From NCBI GenBank assembly GCA_963921795.1, contig OY997651.1, positions 52,757,018 through 52,821,017 on the forward strand: DNA of 64,000 nucleotides, written 5' to 3'. The notes beneath the pieces were generated by a model. That model searched no databases. It was not told the origin of the DNA and worked only from the letters and a program-made list of their open reading frames with translations. Position 1 is the stretch's first letter. Each line of letters opens with the position of its first letter. The stretch is from Nannobrachium achirus (Eukaryota > Chordata > Actinopteri > Myctophiformes > Myctophidae). A program made the translations under genes and the position numbers. Shown here piece after piece: positions 970-62,360 of the stretch.

Positions 970-1769
970 ACATCATGCACATGGTTGTGTGTAAAGAGGA
1001 GGTTTCTCTTGAACGGGAGAGGAGCCCCAGTCTTCTCCAGGAGGAACCAGAGCCTCCACACATTAAAGAGGAACAGGAGGAACAAGAGGAGCCACTTCAA
1101 AGACCAGAGGAGCCTGGAGGGTCAACGTCAACATTACCAGCAGTGAAAAGTGAAGACGACATCTCTTCACACTGTTCTGAAGTTGAAGTCGAGCTTGAAT
1201 CTGACTCTGAAGTCACTGAAGACAGTGACGATTGGGAGGAAACCAGTGGAGGTAAGTCACAGGGACAGGGACAGGACTTACAGTACATTATGTTGGGAAA
1301 AGAAACTGGGAGTTGGAATAAAAGAGATAGAGTGGCAAAGTTTTCTCAAAGTCTCAAATGTGTTTGCCACAAACACTAGCTTGGTCAAAGGGTTTCTGAC
1401 ACGTAAACACAGGTGGGCTTACTGTATTTATACATCCAAAAGCAGAAACTGGACCACAGTACTCACAGATTCCATATGAGGCAAGGATGGCGTTTAGGTG
1501 TTTTACTGAATGTTAATTCCAGCAGTACAAAAAAAAGGGGGTGCACTTTAACAAGAAATATTACATACAATACTGTCTAAAATATGGCCTACTTATATGT
1601 ATATTAAACCAACACACGAAGACAATAATACAATGCAAAATTTGTACCTTAAACATTGTGACTAATTTAGCTCTTACAGTAAATTAATAGGGAAGATGTA
1701 ATTGCTCCTCATTTTATACTCATCAGTTTTAACCTGCCTCTCTTCTCTCCTCCTCTCTACCCTCTATCC

Positions 1770-1829
<60 letters not shown>

Positions 1830-22698: not shown

Positions 22699-22716
22699 TG
22701 GTCCCTCGAGACGGAT
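22699..22716 (+). other. BEL/Pao primer-binding site
   Basis: TGGTCCCTCGAGACGG starts at the base after the LTR end. The TGG start pairs with a tRNA CCA tail. The tRNA was not identified. Confidence 0.65.
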
Positions 22717-22733
22717 CAGGTCAACTATACACT

Positions 22734-27900: not shown

Positions 27901-28125
27901 AATCGTTCCCAGACGATTTGAAGGCCCTTAGGTCTGGTCGTCCTCTACCTTCAGACAGCCGACTGAAATCCCTGTCCCCAGAATATGACGAGGCCAGCGG
28001 ACTGATCAGAGTTGGTGGACGTCTGCGACGTGCAGAAACCCTGGAACAGGACATGATCCACCCTGTAATTTTGGATCCAAGTCACCATGTAACTAAGTTA
28101 CTGATTCAAGACACTGACGAGTCCC
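24950..28125 (+). mobile_element. BEL/Pao pol region: zinc knuckles, protease, RT, RNase H
   Basis: Cys/His knuckles occur around 25040-25200. A protease core with AVLDDGS lies near 25385. Reverse transcriptase runs from about 26030, with RIVFNCS and then FYVDNCLYS near 26650. RNase H includes FCDASERAYGS (about 27200) and LWSDSTTVLNWI (about 27420). Order and motifs are those of BEL/Pao. Fossil copy. Confidence 0.8.
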
Positions 28126-28597
28126 TTAAAGGACAACTTTAGTTTTTTACAACAAGGGTTCATATTTTAGATTGTAATTACAGAATATAAAAGATGAGTG
28201 TTAAAATGATTTAATTTACTTCTTTCTATTGTTTTAGAGATTCTTATTCCAGCGGTTGGGGGCATGCATACAAGTGGCTAAATATGTAATTTTACACAGA
28301 ATAAGCCCATTCCCAAGATACAACACAACCTTTCATGGTTGGATGTGACTTATGTGGGCTAGAAGTGTTACTGTAAATAGCAATAAAGAAACCGCTGGCT
28401 TATTGTGTCTAAAAAGACATATTTAGCCACTTGTACGCATGCCCCCATGCGTACGCATGCCCCACATTTTAGCACGGTAAACGTGATAAAACAATAGAGC
28501 GAAGCAAATGAAAACATTTTAACACTCACTTTTTGTTTTCTCTAATTACAATCTAAAATATGAACCCTTGTTGTAAAAAAACAAAGTTGTCCTTTAA
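28126..28597. mobile_element. Kolobok-like MITE inserted in BEL/Pao pol
   Basis: TTAA-AGGACAAC ... GTTGTCCT-TTAA, 472 bp. It is inverted relative to the copy at 7604-10900. It retains the unfilled GCATGCGTACGCATG site that the other copy lost to hAT insertions. It inserted after the BEL/Pao element, between RNase H and integrase. Confidence 0.85.
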
Positions 28598-28599
28598 GC

Positions 28600-29693
28600 A
28601 CCCAGGACCAGAAAGAGTTCTTGCAGAGCTCCGCCGCAGATTCTGGATCCTGCGAGGGAGAGAGGCTGTGCGCAAATATCAACACTCATGCCTGGAGTGT
28701 CGCCGTTGGAAGGCTAATCCTGAGGTCCCTAGGATGGCCGACCTCCCGCCTGCTCGCCTCAGACTCCACAAGCCTCCTTTCTTTTCGACCGGAGTGGACT
28801 GTTTTGGTCCTTTCCAGATCAAGATTGGCCGCCGGACCGAGAAGAGGTGGGGCATAGTCTATAAATGTATGACGACTCGTTCTGTACATCTAGACCTTCT
28901 AGAAAGTATGGATGCAGATGCCTTTCTACTGTCCCTAAGGCGCTTCATCGCACGTAAAGGCAAGCCATTCGAACTCCTTATGGACAACGGTACCAACTTC
29001 ATCGGCGGAGAACGGGAGCTGCGTGAAACCGTCGCATCCATGGCCCCCCAGCTGAGGGATCAACTTGCTGAGCACCAGATCCTGTTTCAGTTCAATCCAC
29101 CCAGTGCACCACATTTCGGTGGCACCTGGGAGAGAGAAATAAAGTGCATCAAGACAGCCCTTCGGGTAGTCCTCAATGAGCAGACTGTCCCAGAACCTGT
29201 GCTACAGACGATGATGGCCGAAGTCGAAGGCATTATGAATGCCAAACCTTTACGGTATTTGTCGTCAGACGCTATGGACCCGGAACCAGTCACCCCGAAT
29301 CTCCTCCTTATGGGGCGGCATGACTCATCGCTTCCCCAGGCGATTTATGATCCAAGTGACTTGGGGAGAAGACGCTGGAGGCACAGCCAAGTGCTAGCCG
29401 ACCATTTTTGGTCGTCCTTCATTAGACACTACTTGCCAGGGTTGCAGAAACGTACAAAATGGCAGAAGGACTGCAAGGCGCTTGCAGCGGATCAAGTAGT
29501 GCTGATCGTGGACCCCCAGCTTCCTCGCGCATCATGGCCAGTGGGGAAGGTTACTCACACCTACCCTGGGGAGGATGGTCGGGTCAGAACGGCCACGGTC
29601 CAGGTCAAGAACCGCTCGTATCTGCGTCCAGTGGCCCGACTCATCCCACTGCCAGCTCTCGAGGATACGGATGGCCCTGGTTCCAAAGACTAG
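28600..29693 (+). mobile_element. BEL/Pao integrase region
   Basis: HSCLECRRWK (zinc-binding end), GVDCFGPF, a DNGTNFIGGERELRE segment and PPSAPHFGGTWERE mark the BEL-type integrase core, followed by a C-terminal VTHTYPGEDGRVRTATVQV module. Ends just before the 3' LTR. Confidence 0.8.
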
Positions 29694-29740
29694 ACTTTCA
29701 CTTTCTATTAAACTGCCTGCTCGGACAGTTGGGGCGGCTT

Positions 29741-30792
29741 TGTATGAAAGTCTACCCTTCCCCCCACTCAGACTCCATTTCCAGCCTGGCAGTGCCAGGT
29801 GGGCGGCATTCTATATGATGAGGTCACCCTGACACTGCCAGGTTGGTCTAATTTGGCCAGATGAGTGGGAGGCTATATAAGCTGTGGCAAATGTTTGTTC
29901 CCTCTTTTCCAGCCAAGTGTGCGTGTATGACACGATGCAGGCTGCAATGGAGATCACAGCAAAATATTGCCCTAAAGAAATGGAGGCATATGGGTCATGT
30001 GTGCATGCCAACCCATCAACATGGCAACAGGACTGTGAGGAGCTGAAGCTGAAGCTTGCACAGTGCACATCTTCACATCCAATCATCCAGAAGATTGGGT
30101 CAAGTTGTTCCAAGGAGTTTGAAGAATTTGACCGCTGTCTCAGAGAAAACCAGACCTCAGCTGCCTCCTGCACACCACATTTAGCACGTTTTCTTGGATG
30201 CAGCGAGACAGTGGATCTGAGTGAAGTGGCTGCAAATCCAGTTCCTCAGCCCTCCTAGAATCCAGTGGTTATCCATCTACCTCAGAACAGAACCGACAAG
30301 ACTGCTCCACAGGGGATGTAATCCCAGTCACAGCAAGTCATGTACAGTAACACTTTCGACCTCTGTGTTTCATAAGGACTCATTATAGTGACACATCCAC
30401 TTATCGCTGGGACTACTATTATTGCCTTTCATAACTGGTGTGAATGCTGCCAATACACTCATGTATTGAAAACGCAAAGATTTGCCGTGCGTAAGCACTC
30501 TTAAGTTTGTGTGAAAATAAAATGGAAGGTTTTGGTGTGAGTACTGGTTTGGAGCGGTTTCTTTGGTGAAACATAATTAAAAATGTATGTCAGAGACGCA
30601 CATGAGACAGATGATAGTAACACTGTAACCTTGCTTTATCCATTCATTGAGAGACAAACCCCCAGTTGTTCCAAAACATACCACACCCAAACCATTTGTT
30701 TAATTAAAGACTCTGGAATAGGGATTCTTGACTGGATCTCTTTCTTTTAGTGTGCCAACCTGACCGGCTTTCCGAAGTCCTACTTCGTTTCA
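29741..30792 (+). repeat. BEL/Pao 3' LTR
   Basis: 1052 bp, nearly identical to the 5' LTR, ending TTCGTTTCA before the AGTCC target duplication. It carries its own TATA box near 29873, so it could itself drive the second CHCHD5 copy. Confidence 0.85.
29935..30258 (+). CDS. chchd5: CHCHD5-like protein encoded inside the 3' LTR
   Basis: 107 residues, the same as the 5' LTR copy except for one residue (Gln instead of His in the NPSTWQxDC segment). All four CX9C motifs are intact. It is a second copy because both LTRs are made from one template in reverse transcription, so it is not an independent gene duplication. Transcription from the 3' LTR promoter would give an mRNA whose first good ATG is this frame. 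Whether it replaces or supplements the host CHCHD5 is unknown. Confidence 0.88.
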   Translation: MQAAMEITAKYCPKEMEAYGSCVHANPSTWQQDCEELKLKLAQCTSSHPIIQKIGSSCSKEFEEFDRCLRENQTSAASCTPHLARFLGCSETVDLSEVAANPVPQPS

Positions 30793-46555: not shown

Positions 46556-47454
46556 TCACACAGAATTCCAAACAGACTGGACTGAAAGAGGGGTTTTGTT
46601 ACGTTGTTGGTTTCTCTTACCCAGATCTTCGAGAAGAAAGGATTCATACTGTTGCAGAGCATCGTAGAATACTGACATGGCTCTTTTCCCTTTAGGATGC
46701 ACGGCGTCAAACAGTATTCTCATTTGTTCCTGACTGGTCTTTGCTTCCCTGATGCAGTCGTACGTCCCCTTTGAGAAGATGTGTTTGTCGAGCAGGTCAT
46801 CTGCCAGACACAGGACCTCTCTGACACGTTGGATTAGAGCAAGCCTGTTCCTCTCCACAAAGTCAGCTTTCCTGTCTGTCAAAGGAAAAGTCTATTATAA
46901 TACTCGACTTCTGCCCTCAGAAAATTAGAGGTACACTGAACTTGGAAAAAAGAAGACCTCAGACATGAATTATCTCATTATCCATTTGATTATTCTGTAG
47001 TTGTTGGTTTGAGGTTCAAATATACAGCTCAGAGACAAGTACCTGTTGTCTGGCTAATCCGAGGTTCTTTCACAGCTGATGCACCTTAGAGAAGACAAGA
47101 ATCGGTTGATGTAACAGAAATTACTTTCATGTTCATGATGTGATTTTAATGAATTAATTTATCTAACGAGTAAGGAAATGTAAACTCACCTGGCCGATGT
47201 AGGAGAGAATGTCTCTTACTGGTGGCTCTGTCGTCCGATGCATCAGTTCTCTGCTTTGTGACTGTGAAAGAGATGGAAATTCAGCTACTGTCTCGTTCTA
47301 CAACGCTGATCCTGATATTACTCTAATTAATCCAAGCAATTTTAATTCGTAAACTTTAAATCATATGATTCGCTCTAACCTGTTTTCTTTTTGCTCGAGC
47401 CCAGTGGAAACTGACCAAATAGTTGTTGTATCCTGGGCCTTTTCACCAAGTCAT
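46556..47454 (-). CDS. Exons 18-21: basic linker and C-terminal CARD
   Basis: Three short phase-1 exons (47454-47380, 47261-47190, 47084-47043) encode a Lys/Arg-rich linker ([17 protein letters not shown]). The last exon (46875-46556) encodes a [75 protein letters not shown], then a 20-residue tail and stop. It resembles CARDs of ASC, NLRP1 and caspase-1-type proteins. Such CARDs recruit inflammatory caspases or ASC. Confidence 0.85.
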
Positions 47455-49168
47455 CTGACACCACAACAACAAGAGATAAGTATAATCTTTCAGACTGAAA
47501 TACACTGCAAAAGCATCATCTTTCAGACAGAAATAAAATGCAAAAGCATCATCTTTCAGACAGAAATGCACTGCAAAAGTACAAACATTAAAGTAGACAT
47601 GGGTGACTTATACATAGTTACCTTGTCGAATTATATCAGTCCATGCAGTTTCATCAGTACCACTCATTTTAAGATAAAATGTGAAGGGAGGTGAATGCTC
47701 ATAGTATGCTTCAAAGAAACCTCTGATCTGAATTGGTTTCAGGGTGAACGGCAAGTACTGCAAAGACACATAACATTAGTAATTAACATTCAAATTGAAT
47801 GCATGCAGTATGCTCATTGCTACACCTATCTACACAGACACACCTCAGGATAGATTTCTCCTCTTGGCTCACTCATCAGATGGTAGTTCCCCTCTGCCAG
47901 CAGACAGAGCAGATTCTTGTCAACCTTACTGAAACGTCCCTTCTTCATCATCTTCTTGATGTCCTGCCACACACAAGGACAACAGGTATGACAAAAGCAG
48001 AGGAGGGAATACAAAAACTGACTGATACATCTTGAGCACATGTATAGGTATTGCGTATACCATTGTACCTACTGTTGTTCTGTATTGACAGCGTTTTATT
48101 TTTCTTGCCCTAAATTGCTGTATACAACAGTATTTCTAACCTCTTTACCTGTAAATCTGTAACTCTTAATTGCTGTGCTGTATCTGGACGACTGCTTGTC
48201 TGACTGATGTTAAAGTATATTGATTAATTTGTCAGCATATTTATTAACCACTACTATTGAAAAAGATTGTGTAGGTCAAATATTTTATATGTGATTACAA
48301 ATATGAATCATTTTGATTAATTACTTACAAAGCCTATTACAAAGAGTTGCAGCCTTACTAAATATTGATGACAGCTGGTCATTGATCACTATAATTGCTA
48401 GAAATCTAATCAAAATCTTAATCCTTTGATCTCTGCATGTATTTGGACTGGATATAGTGTTCATACAGGAGTCAATAAAGACACGGAATGTTGCTGTTAG
48501 TTCTACTAGACTGGTTGCTAGATTGCTACCGAAGAGGAGTCATAGTGTAGGCCTATCTGATGAGTCAAAACCAAAGTTAGACTGACTCAATCAAAACTGA
48601 CATCATACAATATAGGCAGGAAAGATAGAGTTATTTGTTTACTGGTAGATCTGAAGATGATATGCATTATTACATTATTTCAACTTCCTCTTTTCACTTT
48701 TAGCTCTTTTGAAATCTACCCTTCAAAAGAGCTCTGCAAGTTTATTATTTTAAAGGTTCACATGATTCATGTGAATAGTTATACAACAACGTTTGTCTCC
48801 ATCTTGGTGGCCCGCTCACTTTAATATGAGATGTGTTGCAGCAGACGGGGAAGATGCGGAAAGGGTGGGCGTCGATACTACTTCCCAGAACCTCGTAGAC
48901 CAGCACCGCGCCGTGGTGTTTCTCCTGCGGTGTGTCCAGGACAATGCCACCCACAGGTGACAGGGAGGACACCGGCCACATCAGATGACTACCAGAGTAC
49001 TGGACTTTCTCAATGACGGGATCCTTGCCTTTGACGTGTAGAACACCAAAGACCTTCTCTTTCTCCTGGCCTGCAGGTGTAGATAAAGAGAAGAAGGATG
49101 GAGGGACAGTTGTATAGAGACAACAACTTAAAATGCATGGATGCCAATAAAGACCAATTAAGGCTGAC

Positions 49169-49256
<88 letters not shown>

Positions 49257-50059
49257 TAGAAATTAGCGGCCCTTCGGGTCACTCACATCTAGAGATCGCG
49301 CCCACTTTGCAGGCGCTCACAGCTACGTTGCAGCAGTGATCCAACTGATATGGCCATATATGGAGATCTGTATCTGTCAGATCTGTATCTGTACACTTGC
49401 CCACATGTGTCCAGCTGTCCAGGAGCCCACCTCTCCAAGTGCCCACATGTCCCAAGTGCCCAGTTGCCCAACTCTCAAACTTTGCACACACCTCCTTGGA
49501 TGGCAACTCACAACGACCACCCCTCATTTCTCACATGGCCCTCTTCTAGCGCCACCATGAGGCCGATTTCTGGACACTGCTCCTACAGATTTTGGCCTAA
49601 AATCACGAATTGCGGTACACAGTATCTCATAAAGTCATGTCATCAACATGGATCTATCCCATTTCCCTCCTGATTGGCTACAATTGCCTTCTAAAGTTTG
49701 TGTATGCGACCTGACGGTCGCTTATCTCCCGGTTAGGGAGTCTTACTGGTATTAGACTTGGAAGATGTTTAGTTTTATTATTCAATAATAAATGTATTAT
49801 ACATATATTCTCACCAGCCAGGCACAGGGAGTGAGGTAGTTGGATGAGCTTAATGGCAGATGGATCCTTGTCGACTGTGTGCACGTTGAATATAGGACCA
49901 GCAATCCTCCAGGGGTCCGGGATGAACTTGTTGAACTTTGACCAGGACAGGATGGAATAACGCACCAGAACTCGCGCCGACGCATTAAATATCAAGCCTG
50001 TTAACTCACACTCATATGTCCCCTCTCCTTCCAGATGAGCCCTAAAGAATGCACGCACA

Positions 50060-50134
<75 letters not shown>

Positions 50135-53100
50135 CAAATTTAAAATTCGTATAAGTTATATGAAATATAATTAAACCAGATAAGCAGATGATTTCACAAG
50201 TGATGTCCCGACTCACTGCAAGCGCCCTCTGGACAGTTTCTCAGGGATGATCTTCTTAGTGCCGTAGCTCTACCAAGCAAACACACACAGGAGAGCATTA
50301 CATTCGGGCAGTACATTTATAGGCTGCATAATGCATTGCTAGCAGCGCAGCCTAATAGACTTTTATATTACGAGCCTAGGACACAGCTGCAGTCTGTATA
50401 CCTGGTCTGTGTGCAGCCAGCAAAGCCTATTTTTTTTTTAAAATAAACTACTTACTTGGGCACAGTTACAAAGCGATCAATCATTATCCCCTGGACTTGC
50501 TTGTGCACTGAAGCATAATTATTAATAATAACAAGAAATACTGTTCCTACGAAACAGTGTGGGCTCGCTCGTGACTATATGCTGCAGCGTGCTAACTGTC
50601 ATGTGAAGCTCAACCAATACTCCAGCTAACACCACTCCCACACTTTCCGCACCTCAATTGCACCTCATTGGCTAAGGGCCCTGCCTTTGTACTGTTGTGG
50701 CGGACTTGGTAAATAAATAATGGAGATAACATAGTATTCTCGCCTTTCCCGCGAGCCCACAATTATGTTGAATGAATCCAACATTATAAAGTAAACGTTA
50801 ATGTTACGTCATTTGACAGGATAAATGTCAGCCTGTCACTGATCAGCGCACCTCCTCACATCAAAGGCTTTGCGCTTCCAGATTATTACGTCAAATCCAA
50901 TCAATGACTGCAGAGTTGGACAGTCACTTTGAAAACAGAATGAACACAACAGCTAGTTGTGAGAAGGTAGAACTGTTCTTCATGAATAACCAATAGGCGG
51001 CTACTATTTAATGAAGAGAAAAAAGGCTGCGAGCACACTCCTTAGTCCTTTGCACCCCAAGTGAGCTGTGTATGACGCATATCAAGAAGAGTATAGATCT
51101 GCTTTGATCAAACTGACCTGCTGGACATGTTGGCATTTTTCACAGCATGGTCTGAAGTACACCTGATCTGGAGGGACAAAACATAATAATTACACAATAT
51201 TTACCCAAATGTCACAAAGGTGATTGCGGTATTGCACTCATCCATTCATTCATTCATGTATTCTCATCTCCCACCTACCATTGTCATAATCATCCAGATC
51301 AGGTCTCTTCAGCTCTGCAGGAAGACATTGAAGAGAACATTTTTAATCATGTTTTTAGTGTGGGGCAACCAGACTATACTGTAGTACTTGTCCGACCTTA
51401 TTCCATCCATCTTTGTAGATAAACTTTATTTTGCAACAGTTATGGTGGCTTGCACTTGGGCCATATGTCTAATCAAACGGCTTCATCGTGAAACGCCTGC
51501 TTGCATTGACATCATAGATGGCTGACGTCATAGACAAGAATGAATTTCCCCCTTGGGATAATAAAGGTATCTATCTATCTATCTATCTATCTATAGACCA
51601 CATGAGACTGACACTGTGAAATATTATATTATTATGTGCATATGTTTGTGTGTGGCTGCACCAAGCCCCCAGACACCAGGGGGAAGCCTGAAGCCAAATT
51701 TACATGGTGGCCGTTTGTAGTACTGCAGCTTTTTAACGGATGGGGCCAGAAACATGAACGCGCTTCTAGGCTTCTTTTATTGACAGCGCGTCCATGAACA
51801 TAAACGACGACGCAAAACGCGTCACTTAGGCCCCACAACGTCACGTTTCAAACCCGGAAGAAAGGATTGAAATTTGGCTTCATACGCTGGGTGAGCAACA
51901 CAATACAAGTGGACAGGTGGGGATATCCGGTGTCCTCTCTATTCTTCTATGGGCTGCACTCATGCATGTAAACAGTTGGGGTCCTCTGTTCTAGTGGTGC
52001 CCAAACAAGTGCCTCAACTAAAGTGTCACCTGGGTCCTGATCAGAGGGTGCCTGAGGCATGCCTGCTCTAAATGGGGACAATAAAGGTGGTGATGGGTAG
52101 GCGTGGGGCGGTATCGACATTTTGTTACCGCGATTACCGTCTTCCCATTTACCGCCGGTATTGCGGTAATTACCGCACCCCCGTATCTATTAATTAAGGT
52201 TCGGCGATAAGCCAAAATATTGCAATCGTCTTCCCAAAAGTCGCCTCTCCACAGCCTGACTACCCGAGTTATACTTCCCCGTACAGCACAGCAGGTTTGG
52301 CTTTGAAAGGAGCAGATCTACAAGCTCACAACACGTCGCATCCGCGACGCGTTCTGAGCTTTTAGATCTGCACTGTCGGGTTACCATAGTAACGGTAGCT
52401 ATTTGGGCTTTTAAGACACAGACTGCTGTGTGTGAACAAACCAGAAGAGAGACGGAGACGGGTAATCAGATCGTGTACAGTGATTAACTCACGTCTGAAA
52501 TCGCAGCGATTGAGTGCTGATATATACAGGTTTTAGTGACAAGACTTGACAGAAAAGGTTATAAAATCGGCGACGGGGCACAACGGGGGCACAACGGGCG
52601 AGTCGGCGGCTCGGCGCGACGCGGTGGGAAAAGTAAAAGATAGTTTCATTTTCGATTTTAGTCCACGCGGTCCACGCTCCGCCTGTAATCCGTATGAATA
52701 AAAAACAAAATGCCACAAGGTACTACTGCCACAACACAAGGTATGTATTAACATACTTGTGTTGTGTGGATTACAGTCAGAGAAAGTTTACGCTTCTCCG
52801 TGCTCCCTACTACGAGGCTGCTGCTGTAGACTGTGTCTCCGAGTCGAGTGACGTATGTGGCTTCCAATCCATAGACGTTCCAAACCTGTGGTACGCAGCC
52901 CAGAGCAGAGCGGCATGGAGCGCATGCGGTCCTCGCCTCTCCCCCGTTTTAAAACTCGCTTGTTTTCAATAAAAAATAGACTATTTTGACCGCGGTAAGG
53001 ACCCTGACACCGTGGTAGGCCTCGGTATACCGCGGTACGGCGGTTACCGCCCCCAACCCTAGTGATGGGGAATTTTGTACAGACACAGTATGTCCATATA

Positions 53101-56100
53101 TGGGCATTCCAAGTATGGGCTTAATATTGATGACATCAGGGAGATTTTCTCCATGAACGGAATTCATTTGCAAGTGTGACTCGCTTCACGGCAACCACAC
53201 TTTTAAATCATTATCTTCATTTTGTATCCACACCAACGCCTGGGTTCCCGAGACTCATTGTAGTGTGAAATGTATTACCTTCCTCTCCACATTCTATCTT
53301 CAGCATCTTCATCATGTTCATGCAGTCGTCTGTAGAGAGTAAAGACAGTGGACAGTTAATGGATCAGCGGCAGCTTGGAGGCTTACAGTATAAAAGATTA
53401 ATATGATCCATGACTCTCACCAGAATCCTCTTCCTCCTCTTTCTCCTCATCCTCCTCTTCCTCCTCTTCCTCTGATGAGATGTCAGACAAATCCTAAAAA
53501 TTGAGAAGAAATCGTAAAACACAACTTTAAGCAAGATTCAGTCTAAGAAATTCACATTCAGAATAGTACAGCATCTTTTAAATGACTTAATCTATAAATC
53601 CAGTTGAATTATTCTACTGACTATTCAATTCTGGCAAATCACATACAGTACGGTAATTTATCGATGTCCATTATCCAAGGACAGACATCTGATATGTCCT
53701 TTATGTACATACAGGGTGTATGACCAACAAATGAATCAATAAACAATGTTTATTCATGTAATTTGATGTAATTTATTTTATGTTTTTAAAAATAAATAAA
53801 TCAGTGTTCTGAATGTTGATGGACATGGAGAAATGTGATGGAGAAATTACAAAAATAAGGATTGAACCGATATATATATATATTGGGAGAATAATTTCAT
53901 TAAATGAATCTTGCACAATGTGTTTTGTCTCTCTAATTTCATCCCCTCGCTTCTCTTGTTGAGGAAGATTCTAAGAGTACTACTTGAATGATGACTTGGA
54001 AATTAATTACATAATTCTGATAATGACGTACGTACATTTTGAACAATTTTGCAAATATTTTCCTAAACTTAAGTTTCATCTATAAAACATCTTCATCTCT
54101 CACACTCATCATCACGTCAGCGTCTGCCTGTGAATATACTTCACTCAAGGTCCCATATCCTGAAGAGGACGCAAACCAATCAGAGACTTTCTTGCTAGGT
54201 GACCAGCTGGATACACTTCCTGTCTCAGATGGTGTTTCAACACTCACTGGAAAATAAGACAAGAGACGACATTTACAATTATAATCATCATTATCGTTGT
54301 CGTTGTTGTTATTATTATTATTATATTATTATAATTCATTTACTGCCAGATTTTGACTTTGATTTAGCTTCTGCATTGTCGTTACATGACCCAGAAAGAT
54401 GGAGAGAGGCAGGGTTTGCCTCCTGGCAGATGTTTTCCTACTAATAAGCGCACGCACATTTCTAGTTCTTAGATTGGTTCCAGGGTCAAAACTGCAGGTC
54501 AGAGAGTAAAGATCTTACACGTTGAAATCTTGAGACCATCCATCCTGTAGCCACATTTTTCCAGTAGGAACCTCAGAGGTTCAGACTCAATGTACTCCTC
54601 AACACGTCTGTCTCCTAGCCACCATCCCATCATGGACATAACCAGAGCGTCTCTCTCTGTTTGGGTTCCAAGCTCCTGGAATATGAGGTTTACTGTATGT
54701 TAGTCATAATTAATAGATCACTAACATAGAGCTACAGTACTATATGGAAGTAAATAAAATAGCTAACCGTGACAGTTAGTTAACACAGGTCACAATGACA
54801 TGTACTTGCTAATACTTACATCTACTCCACTACACATTGAACTACTTACTCAACTACTGTACAATTATTTGAAATCATTAATTAGCGACCGTAGTTGAGA
54901 ACATAGTTAGCTACTTAGTATGAAAGCCACCAGATCCTGTCCGTCACTTGTTCCGTCACACAGGCTATATCTCCATATGTCGGGCTATATCCTATAGTCT
55001 GCACACGCCGATGTGCGCCGGTGTCTTACTGCTGTATCGGACTGCTGTATCGGACTGCCAGTGTTTTCTTACCTTTTACGCAGCGGCCGTGCATGTCCAT
55101 TGTGCACGATGGTGCATGGATCGTGTACGACGCGTCTGCACGACATTCGCCGTTCGCGAACATGAACAAACGCATGTTAATCTGAGCTACCGTCCCGAGC
55201 TACCAGCAGCTTTGTTTACACAGTAAGCAAACGGATACAGGATCAGGGATTTGAAAATCGGTTATGTCCCGCCTCCAGAAATGCATTTCCGTATCCAGTT
55301 TCCGGCCCAGACCAGAAGCACTTATTTTAGGGAACCTTGGATAATTTTTCTGATTTTGGATAGTTTTTAAGATAATCAAATTAATTAATACCTCGGAAAA
55401 ATGGCCAAAACTCTGGATATGGCAGGGAATAAAGAACGCATTAATGAATGACTAATTACAAAAGTTGAAACAAATATAAATCAGTACTTGACATTAATTC
55501 AAAACAAAATTTCAAAATGATTTCAACAATCCAACAAATCAAAAAAAAAAAAAAAAAATGCTTGCATGCATGCCGTGATTTTTTTTTTGCTGGAGCAAAT
55601 ACATATTAGTTATAAGAGCAAATACACATTAGTTATTAAGCTGTTATTAGCTGTGTTCATGATTTGAGACACTTTTGTTCAAAACTGAGAAATCCTGCAC
55701 ATTTTGGAAGCCAGTTTAGCCAATCAGGATGTAATATGGAAAATCGGACAGTTCTATTTTGATCACACAATCTGAGCATCTGAGTGTCCAAAGTTTTGCA
55801 AACATTGGCCTCATGGTGGTGCTAGAACAAGGCCCTATGAAAGACCAGGGTGGAAGTGGTTAAACATTCATGACAGCAGATACTTTCACATTAACCAGAA
55901 AACATTTATGTTGTTCTCTTTACTGTTTTACTTTGAGCTCATTCATTATAACATCACACTCATATCATATTACTCACCTTGAGCACAGTTTCTGTAAACA
56001 CATCCTGCTGCGGAATGAGGTTTCCAGCTCTGCTCCTGTCATCCTGCTTTCCACCAACCAACATCAACCTATCATCTGCTAGACTCTGATGTTCTCCTGA

Positions 56101-56225
56101 ATTGCTCCCCCTAGAGGGGAAGAAAGGGTTGACAGTCCCACCGGACACCTCAGTTTGTGTTGCTGTTTGAGTAATAACAACTACTACGACAACGACGACG
56201 ACGAGGACTACTACTACTACTACTG

Positions 56226-56270
<45 letters not shown>

Positions 56271-57234
56271 ATAATAATAATAATAATCGACAATGCAAAC
56301 CAACAGGATTAGAACTGAAATAAAGTCCTGGTTAATCTGATTGATTCAATTCAATCTGTATTAGCAGACTCAGATTGATTGATTGAAGTATTTATTAGAC
56401 ATTTAAGGAAAAGGTACAGTTTCTTGACAGTACAGTTCACTGGCACAAGGTCAACTAAAAGGATAAGCTCATGAAAGCTGTGGCTTGTTTACATTGAGAT
56501 CCTTTTTTATAACATTGAATGACAGAGAGATAGAACACAATACTAGTTAGGGATTTACACTCCTTCGGTAGGGTGTTCCACATTTTAGTGGCATGCAGGA
56601 GAACGAATTTGACCCTTTGTTTGAGCCGAATCTGGGTTATTCGGCTCAAACTCTGGGGTTATTACATTGTCACCCACTTTGAGGGGAGTAGTTAAGGGAG
56701 TGGGATAAAAAAAAAGCCACAGGCTTAGCATGCCGTCCAATCCGAGTGTTCAGTTTAGGAGAAGAAAAAGAAATGAATCAAAACAGGAAATGCATCCCAT
56801 CTGGGGGATTTTGTAGGTGGGACTTACTTGATGTTGTGGTCGTCAGCTGTCGCCACAGCCGCCGCCCCCACCAGGAGACAGGATGCAGAGTCTTTTATGG
56901 TCTTTGTGGACGGGACTTTGAGGACATCTCCCGGCACCCAGCCCTCGATGGCCGATGATTGGCTGTCGGCCCTCCGGCAGACCAGGAACATGTTCTGCTG
57001 ATTGGCTGCCAGGATCTCCACCGTTTCGCCCAATGAGACGCTGACCTCGTTCTCCTTCACAGCCGAGTAGTCCTGACACACCTCCATGATGGTAGAGACA
57101 CCTTTACCGCCTGTAGCACCTCCCTCTGCACCTCCCTCTGCACATCCCTCTGCACCTCCAACACTGTCTGTCTGCTGACGAGGTTCCAGTGGCGGTGACT
57201 TCTGGTACTCGATACAAGACTGCAGGGCTGGGAG

Positions 57235-57327
<93 letters not shown>

Positions 57328-59120
57328 AACAACAACAACAACAACAATAATAAATATAAAAAACAAGTAGTGAAAATAGGCGATCTAAAAGCTCACAAGT
57401 TTGCAGCTCTACTATTTTCACTACTAGGCAAACGTCTAATTTCTTGAGCTAAAACGTAACTATAGGCCTACTGTAAGTAGACACTGCAATGTGACAAGAA
57501 GAACACTGTAGAGCTCTAGACCCTGATGTTAGATAGGAGAGTGTGGAGGGCAGCGATCCAGGAGTCCTGAGTTAAGCCGGTTTTCCATACCACTTTTTAG
57601 CCCGACACTACACGACACGGCACGACACCGCACCGCACCGCATTTTTTATGTAAGAACCCCCCCCCCCCTCTCTCCTCCTCCACTCTCCCCCTCCTCCCC
57701 TCCGCTCCCGAAATAAATCGACGCCCCATTCAACATACGGATACTCGGATCTTCTCAGTCTGTAAACACAACGGAGATGCTAACTTGCGCTAATTATTTT
57801 TAGAGATGTGGTGGACAATGTTTTATGCCACACACTCACACAGGTCTTCATCGAGTCTTTACAACTATAGCGACGACTAACGTCGGGGTGAACATAGTCA
57901 AATAATAACGTTATTGGCCAAACTACACAAAGAAGAGTAGAGGCTAGTTGCGCTAGCATACATGCTAAGCTACAGTACAGTACATGTAGGCTACTGTAGA
58001 TTCTTTTCCCCATTCAACACGGAGATGTGGTGGACAATGTTTTAGATGCCACACGCTCACACAGGTCTTCATCAAGTCTTTACAACTATAGCGACGACTA
58101 ACGTCGGGATGTTCATGGTCAAATAATAACTTTATTGGCCAAACTACACAAAGAAGTAAGCTAATGTAGAGGCTATGCTAGCGCAGCAACAGTACAGTAC
58201 ATGTAGGCTACTGTAGATTTGTCCCCCCATTCAACACATGCAGTTACAAATACAAACAGGAGACATCTCACTGACATCTCATCTATATAAAATAACGTAT
58301 TGCCGACGCATTTGCCGTTGATAATTGCGACTCGCAACGATATAGCCTATGTCCACTGTTTGTGTTGGTTAATGTTCTTGGTGCTTCGTGGCATCTCAAC
58401 TGCAGGGCTGGGGAACACAATTCTGCCTCAGATATATAAAACAAACAGGCTTTGCTTTTATATTTGATTTGCAGCCGTGACTGCATACTAAAATCTGTCT
58501 CAAGTTGTTGTGTTGAAAGACACAGCTCTGCCGTGAGACTGTCTCTGACCAATCAGTATCAGCAGCGTGTATACGTCACTGATTTGGCCTCACTTAGCCC
58601 AGGCCGGACCACCTCAAGAGTGGAGCCGTTATAGTACCACGTTAAGTACCACTTTCACACCACTCTACCCAGTTCCTTGTAGTGGAAAACCTGACACAAG
58701 TGGGCGGTGTGGTGTGGAGTGGTGTGGAGTTGGGCCTGTGGAAAACCGGCTTTAGTGTAGGTTAAGGGCTATGCAGCCCATACAGGCAAACCAGGCAGCT
58801 GCCTGCGACACCACACAGATGGGGGCACCAGACAGCGATAAACATCTTTCCAATCAATTCTAGGCCCCTAAAATATCACCACAAACATCGGCCCTTAACT
58901 ATCAGGGGCCCTCATGATGACCGAATCTGCAATGTCTCACGTTACTTAGTGGCCTTTATTACATGACCTTAAAACATAGATACAGTTAATTTAGATTTAA
59001 ATATATATATTTGAGGATATCTCATGGGGCCCCCTGAGTGTTTTTGAGGGGCCCCAAATGGATTGGAAAGATGTTTGCAATGTCACACGTTATAGTGGTC
59101 TTAATATAGCATGATATCAA

Positions 59121-59202
<82 letters not shown>

Positions 59203-62200
59203 ATTTGGGGCCTCTCAAACATCCATGAATACAAGTCATCCATTGAGATATCCTCAAATATATGTTTTTTTAAATATAAATAAATTGTAAAAAGGCCACA
59301 GAAATGTAACATCTGTTTAACTTCAAATACTTTCAAGGGGTTTACTGGGTTCCTTAAAGATTGCATTGTTTGTTTTTACTGTCAATAATTAAAGTAAGTA
59401 ACTATTCTTCTTCAAAATAACATTTTAAAAGTGATATACTGCACTGCCCGTAGTAGCCCGTAACATGCTCCCATAGACATGCAAATATACAGTATAGGCT
59501 TTGTGTTCACCTGGCAGTGTTAAAATTCACACTGCCTTAAGTAAGTGCAGACTCAGAGGACAATGGAGCTGAAAATCTCTCTGGCAAAGCAGGTCTACAA
59601 GCCCGCAAGATGTCAAGGATCGGTCGGAAAGGGCGATTGCAAATGCACGTAGTGAAGACACAGTGACAGTCAACGAGAGAGAGATAGGGGGAGCAAGCGA
59701 GGGAGAGAGATGTTTCCTCCAGAATTAAAATGGAAAAAAAAAAAAAAAAAGGAATGTGAATGTAGGAAGTGGGCGTGTCTGCTCTCCTCACCAGACAGGA
59801 AGTTGCTCTGAGCGTCCAGGACTTCCTGTACGTGTCGAACCCACAGCCGCTTCACTTCCACGTTAGCGGCCTGCAGCGTGAAGCGCGCCGCAGAGCCGCG
59901 GCACGACAACACTAGCTTACAGGGATCAGCATCCACATGCTCCTCTAAGCTAAGATATGATACCTGGAGGAGAGGAGAGGAGAGGAGAGGAGAGGAGAGG
60001 AGAGGAGAGGACGGTCAGAGTTAGAGTATAGGGGTCAGGGGTTTAAGTTAGGGTCAGGGTTAGAGTAGGGGTCAGGATAAGGTCAGGGTAGGGGTCAGAG
60101 GGGTCAGGATTAGGGTCAGGGTTAGAGTATAGGGGTCAGGGGTTAAAGTCAGGGTTAGAGTAGGGGTCAGGATAAGGTCAGGGTTAGAGTAGGGGTCAGG
60201 GTTAGGGTCAGGTACCTTGATACTGTTCTCGAACTGGTACCCCGGTATAGACGATCCTTTCCTCAGCAGTTTGCTGAAGATGACGATCTGTTCGAACAGG
60301 AAGACCCGCATCTCCTTGGAGCGTGACAGGACGCCGCCGTCCGTCTCCGTCACAAAGAGTGTTTCCTGTTGCAGCAGCTTGCCCTGACTGGTCAGTTTAC
60401 CCTGTCAATCAAACCCAGGTACTAGGTACTCGTACCACAACTAGCAAGAATAAATACATTGATTTGCATACTTTTTTAGTTTTTAGTTATTTTTTAAGGC
60501 CCTTTCGCCAACCCCACCTAGGTAGTATATGAAATTATAAAGGCTTGTAAAGACGATTTCCTCGTTGCAATGAACAGCCAAATGATTTCCAAATGGAAAT
60601 AAGGGTCACCTTAAAAAACACAGTTACTAGACCATATAATGACAAAAGAACAAGCTGACAAAGTGTCAAAATCTATCAAAATCTATCTTTTTTTTTAAAT
60701 GTATTGCCTCTCCTGGCTGCCCGTCCTTTCGTGTCTAGGAACACCGACAGAATGCGGATTAGCTGACTGTGGATTCTGGGTTTTGGGGTGGCAGGCATTG
60801 GCTTTTCTCAGAAGGGGGAACAATTTGACTGGTCGGGATTTCACGTGACCGCCAGGAATACAGGATTGCAATTGGCCGCCCAAGCTCGACAGACAAGTTA
60901 CAGCAGGCGTCACCGTGCCCCACTAGATCCGCAGTGTTACGAAAGTAACGTTACGTCATGTTGTCGGTTGTTGTAGTCATCAGGCGGCCAGAACCAGCAA
61001 ACCGGAAACCCCTGAGTGATACTATCTAGCACATTACATTCGTCCTAAAAATATGTCCATCTTTCCCCCTAAGATGCAGTATGTGACAAGGAACATTTGG
61101 AAGAACATCCGTTTCTATTATAGTTTGAAAATAACTTTTATACTTGCACAAGTTAGCCATACATGGCCACGAGTGCACAAGACGCAAGTTGACACCTCGA
61201 CATATTGTAGTCTAGTTATAATTCTAACTTTCCTGTGGCACCACTTTGAGAAGCCCTGGACTAGAGCTCATGTTAACTCTGCTCGTTCTGATCTCACTCT
61301 ATCTCTCTGGAGAGAGGACAGGAAGTGAACAGAGAACAGGAAGTGAACCTTCTGGATCTAAGGGCGTATATAACCTCCAGGCTTCAGTTAAGATCCGCCC
61401 CTCAGAAGCTTCTGATTGGCTGAACCGGAAGTAGGGAAGCTCCGTTGTATCCACTTGGACCGCGTGGAGGTGGCGAATGTCGGGGGAGGGGGTAACTCGG
61501 TAACGGCGCTGAGTCGGCTCATGCCGTCGGCTCATGGTCGCCTGAGACGGCGCGCCTCCGTCTTCTCCACAGAAAACAAGCGCTCCTTTACAAGAACCTA
61601 ACTGAACCCTGGTGGGTTGGGGATTCACGCAATCTAAGGTGTGAAACAAGAAGCTGGTGGTGAGGAAACAGGAAGTGAGCTCAGAGTATTTGCGTGACAA
61701 TGAATGATAGCGGCGTTCAGGCAAGTCCCGGAAAAGACACACAGTAATTGGCCAGAGGTACGTTGAGTGACAGTTCGCCCCAAACATTATTTACTATTCT
61801 GTCCCCCTGGTTTACACATTCTAATGGCGCTGAGTCGCCTCATTTGACCTTCGCAACGCTCGACACGGAGACTCGGTCACTACCGTGCGCTCGGCGGTGT
61901 CTCACGTGGATCAAGGTCGCCTGAGACAGCCAAATGATTTCCAAATGGAAGTAAGGTTCACATTACGGATCTCTGTCGCTTTTTTGGAAAAGTAATGTCG
62001 GTGTCCATATTTTCTCCGTCTTGCATTGAGAGTGAGTGGAGGGAGGGCGGCGTTGGCCAAATGTCGCTACAATTCACTATTATGCAGAGTATTTACCTCG
62101 TAGCCCCACAGGCGGCCCAGATGCATCATGTCGTTGCACAGCTTAGGAACCTGAGACATGAGGTCTACTGCCCTCTGGTGGAGGGAGGGCAGACAGAAAA

Positions 62201-62360
62201 GTTACCAGTGTTAGCGGCCTATCAGAAGCAGAAGCATTTTATGTGTGGAGGACATTATAATAAATGATTATTAACAATAATTCTAATATCAGTTCAACAA
62301 ATCTGTCACCTCAATCTGTTCACAGTCCAGCCCCGCCTTCAGGCTGTACTTTAGGAAGTC
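46556..62360 (-). CDS. RhoGEF (DH-PH)-SH3-FIIND-CARD fusion protein (5' partial)
   Basis: 21 minus-strand exons: 62360-62310, 62174-62097, 60401-60216, 59963-59792, 57227-56828, 56110-55978, 54675-54519, 54246-54104, 53493-53421, 53329-53279, 51314-51279, 51167-51118, 50269-50217, 50041-49815, 49070-48820, 47963-47844, 47757-47622, 47454-47380, 47261-47190, 47084-47043, 46875-46556. Every junction has AG/GT borders and agreeing phase, and the total is 2826 nt (941 codons plus stop) in one frame. The order is a Trio/Kalirin GEF2-type DH end, PH, SH3, linker, FIIND and CARD. DH-PH modules activate Rho GTPases. FIIND-CARD is the self-cleaving, caspase-recruiting end of NLRP1 and CARD8. The start lies past the window edge. 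The alternative is two neighbouring genes, but no stop, poly(A) signal or new start separates the parts, and the phases match across the SH3-to-FIIND linker. Confidence 0.82.
47622..51314 (-). CDS. Exons 11-17: FIIND (ZU5-UPA) domain
   Basis: A Cys pair (FRPCCEKC) leads into [20 protein letters not shown] and [10 protein letters not shown]...[11 protein letters not shown], the ZU5 start of FIIND. Then comes [20 protein letters not shown] and [20 protein letters not shown], holding the expected catalytic His and the Ser of the self-cleavage site. The UPA part has [27 protein letters not shown] and [18 protein letters not shown]. In NLRP1 and CARD8 this domain cuts itself and the freed UPA-CARD piece triggers caspase-1. 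Here Leu replaces the usual Phe before the Ser. Confidence 0.8.
49178..49256. repeat. (TA)n microsatellite in intron
   Basis: Pure TA run broken by one GTGTATA, in the intron between the two ZU5 exons of the fusion gene. Confidence 0.9.
49480..49747 (-). repeat. Dispersed repeat, copy 3 (inverted)
   Basis: Reverse complement of the 20677-21105 family, from GTAAGACTCCCTAACCGGGA down to about 49480, where it diverges. Lies in a fusion-gene intron. Confidence 0.65.
50071..50132. repeat. (CA)n microsatellite beside ZU5 exon acceptor
   Basis: CA run 30 bases upstream (in gene orientation) of the acceptor at 50042. Confidence 0.9.
51690..51885. repeat. MITE-like inverted repeat in intron
   Basis: CTGAAGCCAAATTT faces AAATTTGGCTTCA about 180 bases later. 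GC-rich interior; class unknown. Confidence 0.45.
52098..53061. mobile_element. Non-autonomous hAT element (GGCGGTA family) with 8-bp TSD
   Basis: Ends TAGGCGTGGGGCGGTA and TACCGCCCCCAACCCTA, flanked both sides by GTGATGGG (52090-52097, 53062-53069). Sub-terminal ACCGCGGTA-type repeats. Lies in a fusion-gene intron and carries a nested hairpin at 52311-52371. Confidence 0.85.
52311..52371. repeat. Palindromic hairpin repeat (family H)
   Basis: GCAGATCTACAAGCTCACAA faces a TTCTGAGCTTTTAGATCTGC arm around ACGTCGCATCCGCGACG. Confidence 0.8.
53279..56110 (-). CDS. Exons 6-10: linker of unknown fold with acidic stretch
   Basis: Exons 56110-55978, 54675-54519, 54246-54104, 53493-53421 and 53329-53279. 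One exon encodes a folded-looking Trp-rich, helical segment ([20 protein letters not shown], then [18 protein letters not shown]). The next is Ser/Thr-rich. The 24-codon exon at 53493 is [21 protein letters not shown] recognise no domain. These exons bridge the RhoGEF and FIIND halves in one frame; the join at 54104 depends on a good GTGAGA donor just before an in-frame stop. Confidence 0.65.
56205..56290. repeat. (ACT)n trinucleotide repeat in intron
   Basis: ACT/ACG run passing into AAT repeats, 95 bases upstream of the acceptor of exon 6 in gene orientation. Confidence 0.85.
56372..56655 (-). mobile_element. LINE ORF2 C-terminus and 3' end (inverted)
   Basis: The minus-strand frame reads [20 protein letters not shown], the ATKxWNxLP end of LINE reverse transcriptase proteins, then a tail ending TTCAATCAATCAATC. 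The tail matches 12210-12316. Inserted in a fusion-gene intron. Confidence 0.65.
56828..57227 (-). CDS. Exon 5: SH3 domain
   Basis: This 400-nt exon continues [14 protein letters not shown] (Trio: NALQSPIEYQR), then a Gly/Ala-rich repeat ([14 protein letters not shown]). The SH3 domain is at exon residues about 50-107: [46 protein letters not shown]. It corresponds to the SH3 that follows GEF2 in Trio and Kalirin (DYTAVKEDE...NQQNMFLV...EGWIPG). A long (TG)n lies just upstream of its acceptor. Confidence 0.9.
57234..57321. repeat. (CA)n microsatellite abutting SH3 exon
   Basis: On the gene strand this is a (TG)n run of about 85 bases ending six bases before the CCCAG acceptor of the SH3 exon. 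Confidence 0.9.
57367..57426. repeat. Short family H hairpin, inner stem shortened
   Basis: TAGTGAAAATAGGCG pairs with ACTATTTTCACTA outside, with GATCTAAAAGCTCACAAG as one inner arm and little left of the other. Confidence 0.7.
57574..58753. mobile_element. DNA-transposon-like element with AAGCCGGTTTTCCA ends
   Basis: AAGCCGGTTTTCCATACCAC at the left faces GTGGAAAACCGGCTTTA at the right. Sub-terminal CACGACACGGCACG and GTGTGGAGTGGTGTGG are also complementary in type. A tandem duplication of about 220 bp (GATGTGGTGGACAATGTTTT at 57804 and 58022) fills the middle. It lies in a fusion-gene intron. Class uncertain. Confidence 0.6.
58754..59791. other. intron sequence with (TG)n
   Basis: No exon seen. 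A TG run lies at 59121-59200, between inverted copies of GGCCCC and CCATTTGGGGCC sequence, and one hairpin-family arm (GGTCTACAAGCCCGCAA) near 59590. Confidence 0.5.
59792..62360 (-). CDS. Exons 1-4: end of DH domain and PH domain
   Basis: [17 protein letters not shown], then [20 protein letters not shown], match the last DH helix of Trio/Kalirin GEF2 and ARHGEF25. The PH domain follows: [56 protein letters not shown] and the C-terminal helix [20 protein letters not shown]. The catalytic DH core (CR1, CR2) would lie upstream, outside the window. Introns contain AGGAG and TCAGGGTTAG repeats. Confidence 0.88.
59969..60215. repeat. (GGAGA)n and GGGTCAGGGTTAGAGTA minisatellite
   Basis: A pentanucleotide run at 59969-60012 is followed by about eight degenerate GGTCAGGGTTAG units in the short intron between the two PH exons. 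Confidence 0.8.
60410..62090. other. intron sequence with repeated CGCTGAGTCG blocks
   Basis: No exon recognised. GGCGCTGAGTCGxCTCAT recurs at about 61507 and 61825, GGTCGCCTGAGAC at about 61535 and 61914, and AGCCAAATGATTTCCAAATG at about 60577 and 61928, indicating a duplicated or transposon-derived block. Confidence 0.5.

What the first reader, a model, noticed from the sequence alone, without database searches (positions are those of the whole stretch)
46556..62360. RhoGEF-SH3-FIIND-CARD: a Rho-signalling protein fused to an inflammasome effector end
Seen: 21 consecutive minus-strand exons, all with matching splice phases and no break in frame, run from a Trio/Kalirin-like DH-PH-SH3 into a FIIND and CARD. 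Known: FIIND-CARD is the self-cleaving output of NLRP1 and CARD8, and innate sensors such as pyrin monitor Rho GTPase tampering by pathogens. Inferred: this fish protein could be a sensor that uses a RhoGEF module as bait or switch and frees UPA-CARD to recruit caspases. I know of no described vertebrate protein with this architecture.
Basis: partly seen in the sequence, partly recalled or inferred. Interest (0 to 1): 0.92.

Follow-up and report, generated by a model that had tools for sequence, protein, structure and literature searches.

The report
Rho-regulator gene joined to inflammasome end
In this fish-like genome the front of a cell-skeleton regulator gene sits next to, and in frame with, the back of an immune-alarm gene, so the two could make one hybrid protein; whether the cell really makes it is not yet shown.

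Summary
Eighteen (not 21) minus-strand exons with GT-AG borders give one 890-codon frame through DH end, PH, Kalirin-type SH3, FIIND (ZU5+UPA) and CARD. Five exons outside the window complete the DH. Window 62472-56128 matches a RhoGEF copy on C22 (60415-56755 also one on C546); neither has a FIIND unit in the DNA read. Window 56100-46231 matches FIIND-CARD loci elsewhere, which carry AIG1/GIMAP GTPase exons where the flank could be read. The breakpoint lies within 28 bases. The parent introns differ in phase, so a plain join would shift the frame; a strong acceptor at the joint, 14 bases upstream of the family's own, keeps it open. Neither half has stops or frameshifts where neutral decay predicts some. 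The pairing was seen at one locus in this genome; other fish could not be searched; no transcript was available. A FIIND-CARD chimera is well supported; one mRNA is somewhat more likely than not; a Rho-bait sensor is inference.

The parts
62310..62360 (-). RhoGEF exon DH5 ([17 protein letters not shown])
   Evidence: splice borders and frame; homologous exon on C22
62097..62174 (-). RhoGEF exon DH6, end of DH domain
   Evidence: with exons outside the window PF00621 E=1.3e-38
60216..60401 (-). PH exon 1
   Evidence: PF22697 E=5.9e-25
59792..59963 (-). PH exon 2
56828..57227 (-). SH3 exon; ends AACATCAA|GTAAGT, leaving 2 bases of a codon (an in-frame TAA follows if unspliced)
   Evidence: PF23587 SH3_KALRN E=8e-24; same donor in C22 and C546
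56100..56128 (.). breakpoint between RhoGEF homology (above) and AIG1-FIIND-CARD homology (below)
56391..56396 (-). AATAAA signal in the 717-base SH3-to-A intron, inside a stretch (56374-56505) that also matches C22 at another place, so repeat-like
55978..56110 (-). exon A, decayed AIG1-like start; in-frame acceptor at 56110 (simple score 10.8), family acceptor at 56096 (score -3.1)
   Evidence: AIG1 likeness by eye, no Pfam hit
54519..54675 (-). exon B, decayed AIG1-like piece; its 3' border rests on the window alone
   Evidence: stop-free homologues in C13 and C3, only partly mapped there and not found in C1 or C18; no Pfam hit, AIG1 likeness by eye
54104..54246 (-). exon C, linker
53421..53493 (-). 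exon D, acidic linker
53279..53329 (-). exon E, linker
51118..51167 (-). exon F, linker
50217..50269 (-). exon G, start of FIIND
49815..50041 (-). exon H, FIIND ZU5 part
   Evidence: PF13553 E=3.2e-27
48820..49070 (-). exon I, ZU5 end, catalytic His (LHVKGKD), cleavage motif SLSP, start of UPA
   Evidence: aligned to NLRP1 His and FSP motif
47844..47963 (-). exon J, UPA
   Evidence: PF23679 E=1.9e-8
47622..47757 (-). exon K, UPA
47190..47261 (-). exon L, UPA-CARD linker
46556..46875 (-). exon M, CARD and stop codon
   Evidence: PF00619 E=4.6e-16

Best explanation
This is a young chimeric gene. The 5' part is a copy of a Trio/Kalirin-GEF2-type RhoGEF gene (DH-PH-SH3), cut in the intron after its SH3 exon. 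The 3' part is the tail (decayed AIG1 piece, linker, FIIND, CARD) of a member of this genome's AIG1/GIMAP-GTPase-FIIND-CARD family. The RhoGEF promoter would drive one pre-mRNA. The SH3 donor splices to the acceptor at 56110 and keeps the frame, giving DH-PH-SH3-linker-ZU5-UPA-CARD. By analogy with NLRP1 and CARD8 (inferred) the FIIND cleaves itself at SL|SP, the N-terminal part holds UPA-CARD in check, and loss or degradation of the N-terminal part frees UPA-CARD to nucleate caspase or ASC filaments. The RhoGEF head would then be the handle whose cleavage, ubiquitination or membrane recruitment trips the alarm. Shown by sequence: the two homology blocks, the breakpoint, the intact frame, the domains, the conserved His and Ser. 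Inferred: one mRNA, autoproteolysis, signalling, and what is sensed.
For: Sharp change of homology at 56128/56100: RhoGEF copy C22 (and, up to 56755, C546) on one side, FIIND-CARD loci C13, C3, C1, C18 on the other. All 18 exons have GT-AG borders and compatible phases; ORF of 890 codons. The C22 copy shows the natural phase of the SH3 intron: its next exon supplies the one base needed (K|KSVSWNTLRARKRAE), and this exon was found only on C22. The AIG1 exon ends read by eye in C13, C3 (second AIG1 exon) and L056 leave one base (phase 1), so a plain join would be out of frame; the joint carries an acceptor (56110, score 10.8, best of six above 4 between SH3 and the end of exon A) that keeps the frame, while the family acceptor scores -3.1. 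If the window branch were neutral since splitting from paralogs (half the pairwise non-coding divergence), P(no stop or frameshift) is 2.3e-6 to 2.5e-5 for the in-window RhoGEF exons (C546, C22) and 5e-11 to 5e-10 for the FIIND unit (C1, C13, C3; C18 not used). No AIG1 exon is found in the window or 39 kb upstream, so an upstream partner is the simplest way for the FIIND unit to be translated.
Against: No transcript could be examined. A phase match at one joint is a 1 in 3 event. The SH3 exon runs into an in-frame TAA, and an AATAAA lies at 56396 before exon A, so transcripts could end there. Over PH and SH3 the window branch shows 10 nonsynonymous to 6 synonymous changed codons against 5 to 13 on C22, that is, relaxed constraint. 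Linker exons show little constraint (dN/dS 0.51-1.12 against four paralogs, exon B left out, not all exons mapped in each). ORF survival may reflect selection before the join, or on two separate genes; the indel rates come from short, repeat-rich non-coding stretches (374-2839 bases). Cleavage-motif P1 is Leu, not Phe, here and in the four paralogs read.
Confidence: 0.55

Rival explanations
1. Two neighbouring transcription units. The RhoGEF copy ends just after SH3 (read-through of the donor to the in-frame TAA, poly(A) at the AATAAA at 56396) and the FIIND-CARD part is expressed from its own new promoter or is silent.
For: In-frame TAA directly after the SH3 exon in three of three RhoGEF copies; AATAAA at 56396; the C22 copy's next exon was not found at C14 or C546, so a 3'-truncated copy exists without a FIIND unit in the DNA read (C546, about 7.6 kb).
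Against: The SH3 donor is intact (score 9.3) and in C22 fits a Kalirin-like next exon in frame. The FIIND unit has lost its family's AIG1 exon yet exon A keeps an open frame and a strong acceptor in phase with SH3. Whether the FIIND unit has a first exon or promoter of its own was not properly tested (the scan is for bacterial promoters).
Confidence: 0.28
2. A dying chimera or an assembly misjoin: the join is real but not functional, or the two blocks were put together wrongly in a repeat-rich stretch.
For: Simple repeats flank the joint: a trinucleotide run (TAG)n just upstream in the window and, in C13 and C3, (TG)n before exon A. RhoGEF amino-acid changes where the other two copies agree. 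One locus only.
Against: No stop or frameshift in 2673 coding bases where neutral decay predicts several. The window carries neither repeat at the joint itself but about 27 bases of other sequence with the acceptor, unlike a repeat-to-repeat switch.
Confidence: 0.14
3. An old, conserved vertebrate or teleost RhoGEF-FIIND-CARD family.
For: None beyond the architecture itself.
Against: In this genome two of the three close RhoGEF copies show no FIIND unit in the DNA read (C22 about 14 kb, C546 about 7.6 kb after SH3), and the FIIND tail belongs to an AIG1-linked family. No paper holds both FIIND and RhoGEF in the library searched. Other fish genomes could not be searched.
Confidence: 0.03

Closest known systems
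CARD8 and NLRP1 (FIIND-CARD inflammasome sensors)
   Same: ZU5-UPA FIIND followed by C-terminal CARD; catalytic His and SP of the cleavage motif align with NLRP1 (CARD8 was not among the four FIIND hits there)
   Different: No NACHT-LRR; N-terminal part is DH-PH-SH3; P1 residue is Leu instead of Phe
Zebrafish Gbp3/Gbp4 (GBP GTPase with FIIND and CARD; PMC4932187, passages and figure legend seen)
   Same: Fish proteins in which a GTPase module, not an NLR, stands with FIIND and CARD; Gbp4 works through Asc and caspase in that paper
   Different: Head is a GBP GTPase, not a RhoGEF; an experimentally tested gene
AIG1/GIMAP-FIIND-CARD family of this genome (no paper found)
   Same: Parent family of the 3' half: exons A to M are shared in part or whole
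   Different: Relatives with readable flanks (C13, C3, L056) have an AIG1 GTPase exon upstream; the window has RhoGEF exons instead
Trio GEF2 / ARHGEF25 (p63RhoGEF) / Kalirin
   Same: DH-PH best matches Trio (6d8z, E=2.7e-120), then ARHGEF25 (2rgn) and Kalirin (8c7d); SH3 matches SH3_KALRN (that 6d8z is the GEF2 module is recalled)
   Different: The Kalirin-like exon that follows SH3 in the C22 copy was not found at this locus; FIIND-CARD follows instead

Membership tests
FIIND-CARD sensors (NLRP1/CARD8 type) | FIIND ZU5 and UPA subdomains | tested here: met
   PF13553 E=3.2e-27, PF23679 E=1.9e-8, both above cut-off in the fused protein; UPA-FIIND was just under its cut-off in the first, incomplete model (26.9 against 27)
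FIIND-CARD sensors (NLRP1/CARD8 type) | C-terminal CARD | tested here: met
   PF00619 E=4.6e-16; solved relatives include cIAP1, a guanylate-binding-like CARD, ASC and CARD8 (24 of its 48 rows are TAL-repeat chains without a passing stretch and were ignored)
FIIND-CARD sensors (NLRP1/CARD8 type) | catalytic His (H1186 in human NLRP1, PMC8081665 passage) and Ser of the cleavage motif | tested here: met
   both columns align
FIIND-CARD sensors (NLRP1/CARD8 type) | Phe before the scissile Ser (FS motif) | tested here: not met
   Leu-Ser (SLSP) in the window and in four of four paralogs read
FIIND-CARD sensors (NLRP1/CARD8 type) | actual autoproteolysis and inflammasome activity | not testable with these tools
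   needs expression
NLRP1 | NACHT and LRR upstream of FIIND | tested here: not met
   upstream exons are RhoGEF; no NACHT or LRR hit in the 890-residue protein
Trio/Kalirin RhoGEFs | DH-PH plus Kalirin-type SH3 | tested here: met
   five DH exons lie outside the window
Trio/Kalirin RhoGEFs | Kalirin-like exon after SH3 (KKSxSWxTLRxRKRAE; motif recalled, found on C22) | tested here: not met
   found only on C22 in the own-genome search
AIG1/GIMAP-FIIND-CARD family of this genome | shared exons A to M | tested here: met
   exon A found in two of four paralog loci (C13, C3), the held DNA of C1 and C18 does not show it (short flank; N gap); the C18 locus has a more diverged CARD (49% identity)
AIG1/GIMAP-FIIND-CARD family of this genome | intact AIG1 GTPase exon upstream | tested here: not met
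   none in the window or 39 kb upstream (tblastn with the C13 exon); AIG1 scored by Pfam in C13, C3 and L056
one fused gene | single transcript across SH3 and FIIND | not testable with these tools
   no RNA data

The most novel reading that the evidence does not exclude
In this fish a FIIND-CARD effector tail has been taken from a GIMAP-type immune GTPase family and put behind a complete RhoGEF module, making a decoy sensor. Tampering with Rho-pathway proteins at the RhoGEF head (cleavage, ubiquitination, binding of bacterial effectors) would destroy the head and free UPA-CARD, a direct link between Rho surveillance and the functional-degradation inflammasome. It would be part of a wider habit in this genome of swapping sensor heads (AIG1, PRY-SPRY, RhoGEF) in front of FIIND-CARD.
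Probability: 0.27. Interest if true: 0.88.

Novelty: new variant of a known kind. Interest (0 to 1): 0.63.

Why it matters
FIIND-CARD proteins act as tripwires: whatever sits in front of the FIIND decides what is sensed. A head made of a complete RhoGEF would tie a known pathogen target, Rho signalling, straight to this switch without pyrin. Even as a one-genome chimera, it is an example of how an immune sensor can arise by joining two genes at an intron, with a shifted acceptor that keeps the frame. It also points to an AIG1/GIMAP-FIIND-CARD family for which I found no paper in the library searched.

Tried and rejected
Considered and rejected: (1) chance ORFs: rejected, Pfam scores far above most cut-offs and paralog-conserved exons. 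(2) The linker exons B to G as a Kalirin-like tail: first suspected from the acidic exon, rejected because they match the FIIND-CARD paralogs and not the RhoGEF copies. (3) Use of the family acceptor at 56096 from the SH3 donor: it would shift the frame, with a stop after eight residues. (4) An old Trio/Kalirin-FIIND family: C22 continues with a Kalirin-like exon instead. (5) In one search some exon borders were off by a few bases (B, C, G, H, I, L), so its fused translation broke; corrected. (6) Structure prediction was not run: the tool takes window proteins given letter for letter by the DNA, which a spliced protein is not. (7) (bacterial promoter scan) is not informative for a fish gene. 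(8) The dN/dS figures for exon M include a C-terminal tail that is out of register in C13 and C1, which inflates dN. (9) Two short matches (39 and 57 bases) of window 50529-50567 and 50711-50766 to C22, in the opposite orientation, lie between exons of the FIIND unit and were taken as repeats.
Full report
OBSERVATION. The window lies in a 1.66-Gb, 564-contig genome at C14:52757018-52821017. I rebuilt the minus-strand exons from open frames, splice borders and homology. Eighteen exons from 62360 to 46556 all have AG/GT borders and pass the frame from one to the next, giving 2673 coding bases (890 codons plus stop). Pfam finds SOS1_NGEF_PH (5.9e-25), SH3_KALRN (8e-24), FIIND (3.2e-27), UPA-FIIND (1.9e-8) and CARD (4.6e-16), all above cut-offs. 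The window holds only the last two DH exons. Five more lie beyond its end at extended coordinates 87436-81183, and with them the RhoGEF family scores 1.3e-38 and the best solved relative is Trio (6d8z, 2.7e-120), then ARHGEF25.

TWO PARENTS. A protein search of the whole genome with the PH-SH3 part gave 86 matches from 102 candidates, all scored. Three loci match at 77% identity or more over both PH and SH3 exons: the window, C22:16876506-16881915 and contig C546:57610-59298; a C2 piece matches at 81% over 52 PH residues only. C22 DNA matches the window from 62472 to 56128 and C546 DNA from 60415 to 56755. Beyond that C22 has only two short matches (39 and 57 bases, opposite orientation), though about 14 kb (C22) and 7.6 kb (C546) after the SH3 were held. 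tblastn with the whole FIIND unit found nothing at E 0.01 in either, but 12 and 11 matches in the C13 and C3 loci. A genome search with the FIIND-CARD part gave 132 matches from 121 scored of 640 candidates, on many chromosomes, at up to 91% identity outside the window, none of them listed on C22 or C546 (a lower bound). In the four such loci that I read (C13, C3, C1, C18) the DNA matches the window from the CARD exon or its 3' flank up to the linker exons, and in C13 and C3 up to 56100. The first exon of this unit (A) has full matches at 39 other places among 40 scored of 120 candidates, and in 39 of 39 the similarity starts at query base 11, that is window 56100. Hence the locus is a joint of two blocks with a breakpoint in 56128-56100.

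WHAT NORMALLY STANDS IN FRONT OF THE FIIND TAIL. Upstream of exon A, three relatives whose flank could be read have exons that match AIG1 (PF04548): C13 (4.1e-35), C3 (2.9e-28; a second AIG1-like exon there was read by eye) and L056 at C18:7.86 Mb (1.1e-42), an exon-A locus with a FIIND match 6.7 kb downstream on the same strand. In the C1 and C18:8.87-Mb loci no AIG1 exon is in the DNA held, which is short (C1) or broken by an N gap (C18). So the parent family reads AIG1/GIMAP GTPase, decayed AIG1-like piece, linker, FIIND, CARD. No AIG1 exon is in the window or 39 kb upstream of it. Another branch of FIIND-CARD in this genome is single-exon; of six such frames printed, the one scanned with Pfam carries PRY-SPRY in front (L008). 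The PF13553 search gave 151 matches from 150 scored of 410 candidates, a lower bound.

THE JOIN. In three of three RhoGEF copies the SH3 exon ends AACATCAA|GTAAGT. In C22 the next exon starts after an AG with one base that completes Lys and reads on as KSVSWNTLRARKRAE, like the exon after SH3 in Kalirin (Kalirin letters recalled). So this is a phase-2 intron. That exon was found only on C22 in the own-genome search. The AIG1 exons of C13, C3 (second exon) and L056 end, read by eye, with one base over (phase 1), and exon A in C13 and C3 starts after ATCAG or TCAG with two bases before its first full codon. A plain join of the two introns would be out of frame: read so, the message stops after eight residues. 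At the joint the window has CCCTTTCTTCCCCTCTAG|G, 14 bases upstream of the family acceptor and not seen in C13 or C3. It scores 10.8 in a simple matrix, the best of six above 4 between the SH3 exon and the end of exon A, while the family acceptor, now without its pyrimidine tract, scores -3.1. Use of 56110 makes the frame open through to the CARD stop. A one-in-three phase match at one joint is not proof. Exon B's 3' border rests on the window alone.

ARE THE PARTS ALIVE? Taking half of the non-coding divergence and the indel rate between the window and its paralogs, neutral decay on the window branch predicts about 11 to 13 disabling changes in the in-window RhoGEF exons (C22, C546) and 22 to 24 in the FIIND unit (C13, C3, C1; C18 not used); none is seen. 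The indel rates come from short repeat-rich stretches and may be too high, and the estimate does not tell when selection acted. Over PH and SH3 the window branch has 6 synonymous and 10 nonsynonymous changed codons, C546 5 and 7, C22 13 and 5: the C22 copy is tightly kept, the window and C546 copies loosely. In the FIIND unit dN/dS against paralogs is 0.26-0.48 for ZU5 with the cleavage site, 0.40-0.89 for UPA, 0.44-0.62 for CARD (three paralogs) and 0.51-1.12 for the linker; exon B was left out and not all exons mapped in each paralog.

MECHANISM. The catalytic His and the SP of the FIIND cleavage site align with NLRP1 (His role from PMC8081665, passages seen). P1 is Leu in the window and in four of four paralogs, where six of six single-exon frames printed have Phe. 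I infer a CARD8-like device: autoproteolysis, N-terminal part as inhibitor, release of UPA-CARD when the N-terminal part is destroyed. The CARD is closest among solved structures to cIAP1, a guanylate-binding-like CARD (zebrafish, recalled), ASC and CARD8, so either ASC or caspase recruitment is possible. The RhoGEF head would set where the protein sits and what destroys it.

KNOWN OR NEW. Zebrafish Gbp3/Gbp4 carry FIIND and CARD with a GTPase (PMC4932187, figure legend and passages), so putting other heads with FIIND-CARD is a known fish theme. No paper in the library holds both FIIND and RhoGEF. Of 34 papers with two of FIIND, GIMAP, AIG1, none of the 20 listed holds FIIND; of 268 papers with three of five related terms, none of the 10 listed holds GIMAP. 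Most subscription papers are not in that library. Fusion genes linked to segmental duplication are documented in human (PMC6764479, abstract). I file this as a new variant of FIIND-CARD proteins, not as NLRP1, CARD8 or Kalirin.

VERDICT. Structural chimera: very likely. One fused transcript: somewhat more likely than not (0.55). Rho-surveillance sensor: plausible, untested.

Noticed in passing
G000 C18:6.6-8.4 Mb, C13, C3 and others; L045:2359-3081, L048:1730-2488, L056:20-1030: An AIG1/GIMAP-GTPase-FIIND-CARD family in this genome; exon A of it has full matches at 39 places outside the window (of 40 scored, 120 candidates), and at several C18 places the DNA just after it recurs in 54-base steps.
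   Followed up: partly
L008:706-2931 (minus): A single open frame of 742 codons carrying PRY, SPRY, FIIND, UPA-FIIND and CARD: another sensor head in front of FIIND-CARD.
   Followed up: partly
G000 C7:17.5 Mb, C12:18.1-18.3 Mb, C13:43.4 Mb, C16:26.9 Mb, C448: Arrays of near-identical intronless DH-PH (RhoGEF) frames of about 380-400 codons, mostly spaced about 14.4 kb apart.
   Followed up: no
window 21762-30255: By eye a retroelement with gag-like, protease, reverse transcriptase and integrase frames (about 23473-29690), flanked by two stretches (21787-22161, 29881-30255) that each hold a nearly identical 125-codon frame resembling a twin-CX9C (CHCHD) protein, so possibly a host gene caught in the terminal repeats.
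   Followed up: no
window 1733-3109: A long C2H2 zinc-finger frame; an 84-base unit in 15 copies.
   Followed up: no
G000 C546 (84.9 kb contig): A third RhoGEF copy whose DH and PH exons lie about 33 kb apart and for which the Kalirin-like next exon was not found.
   Followed up: partly
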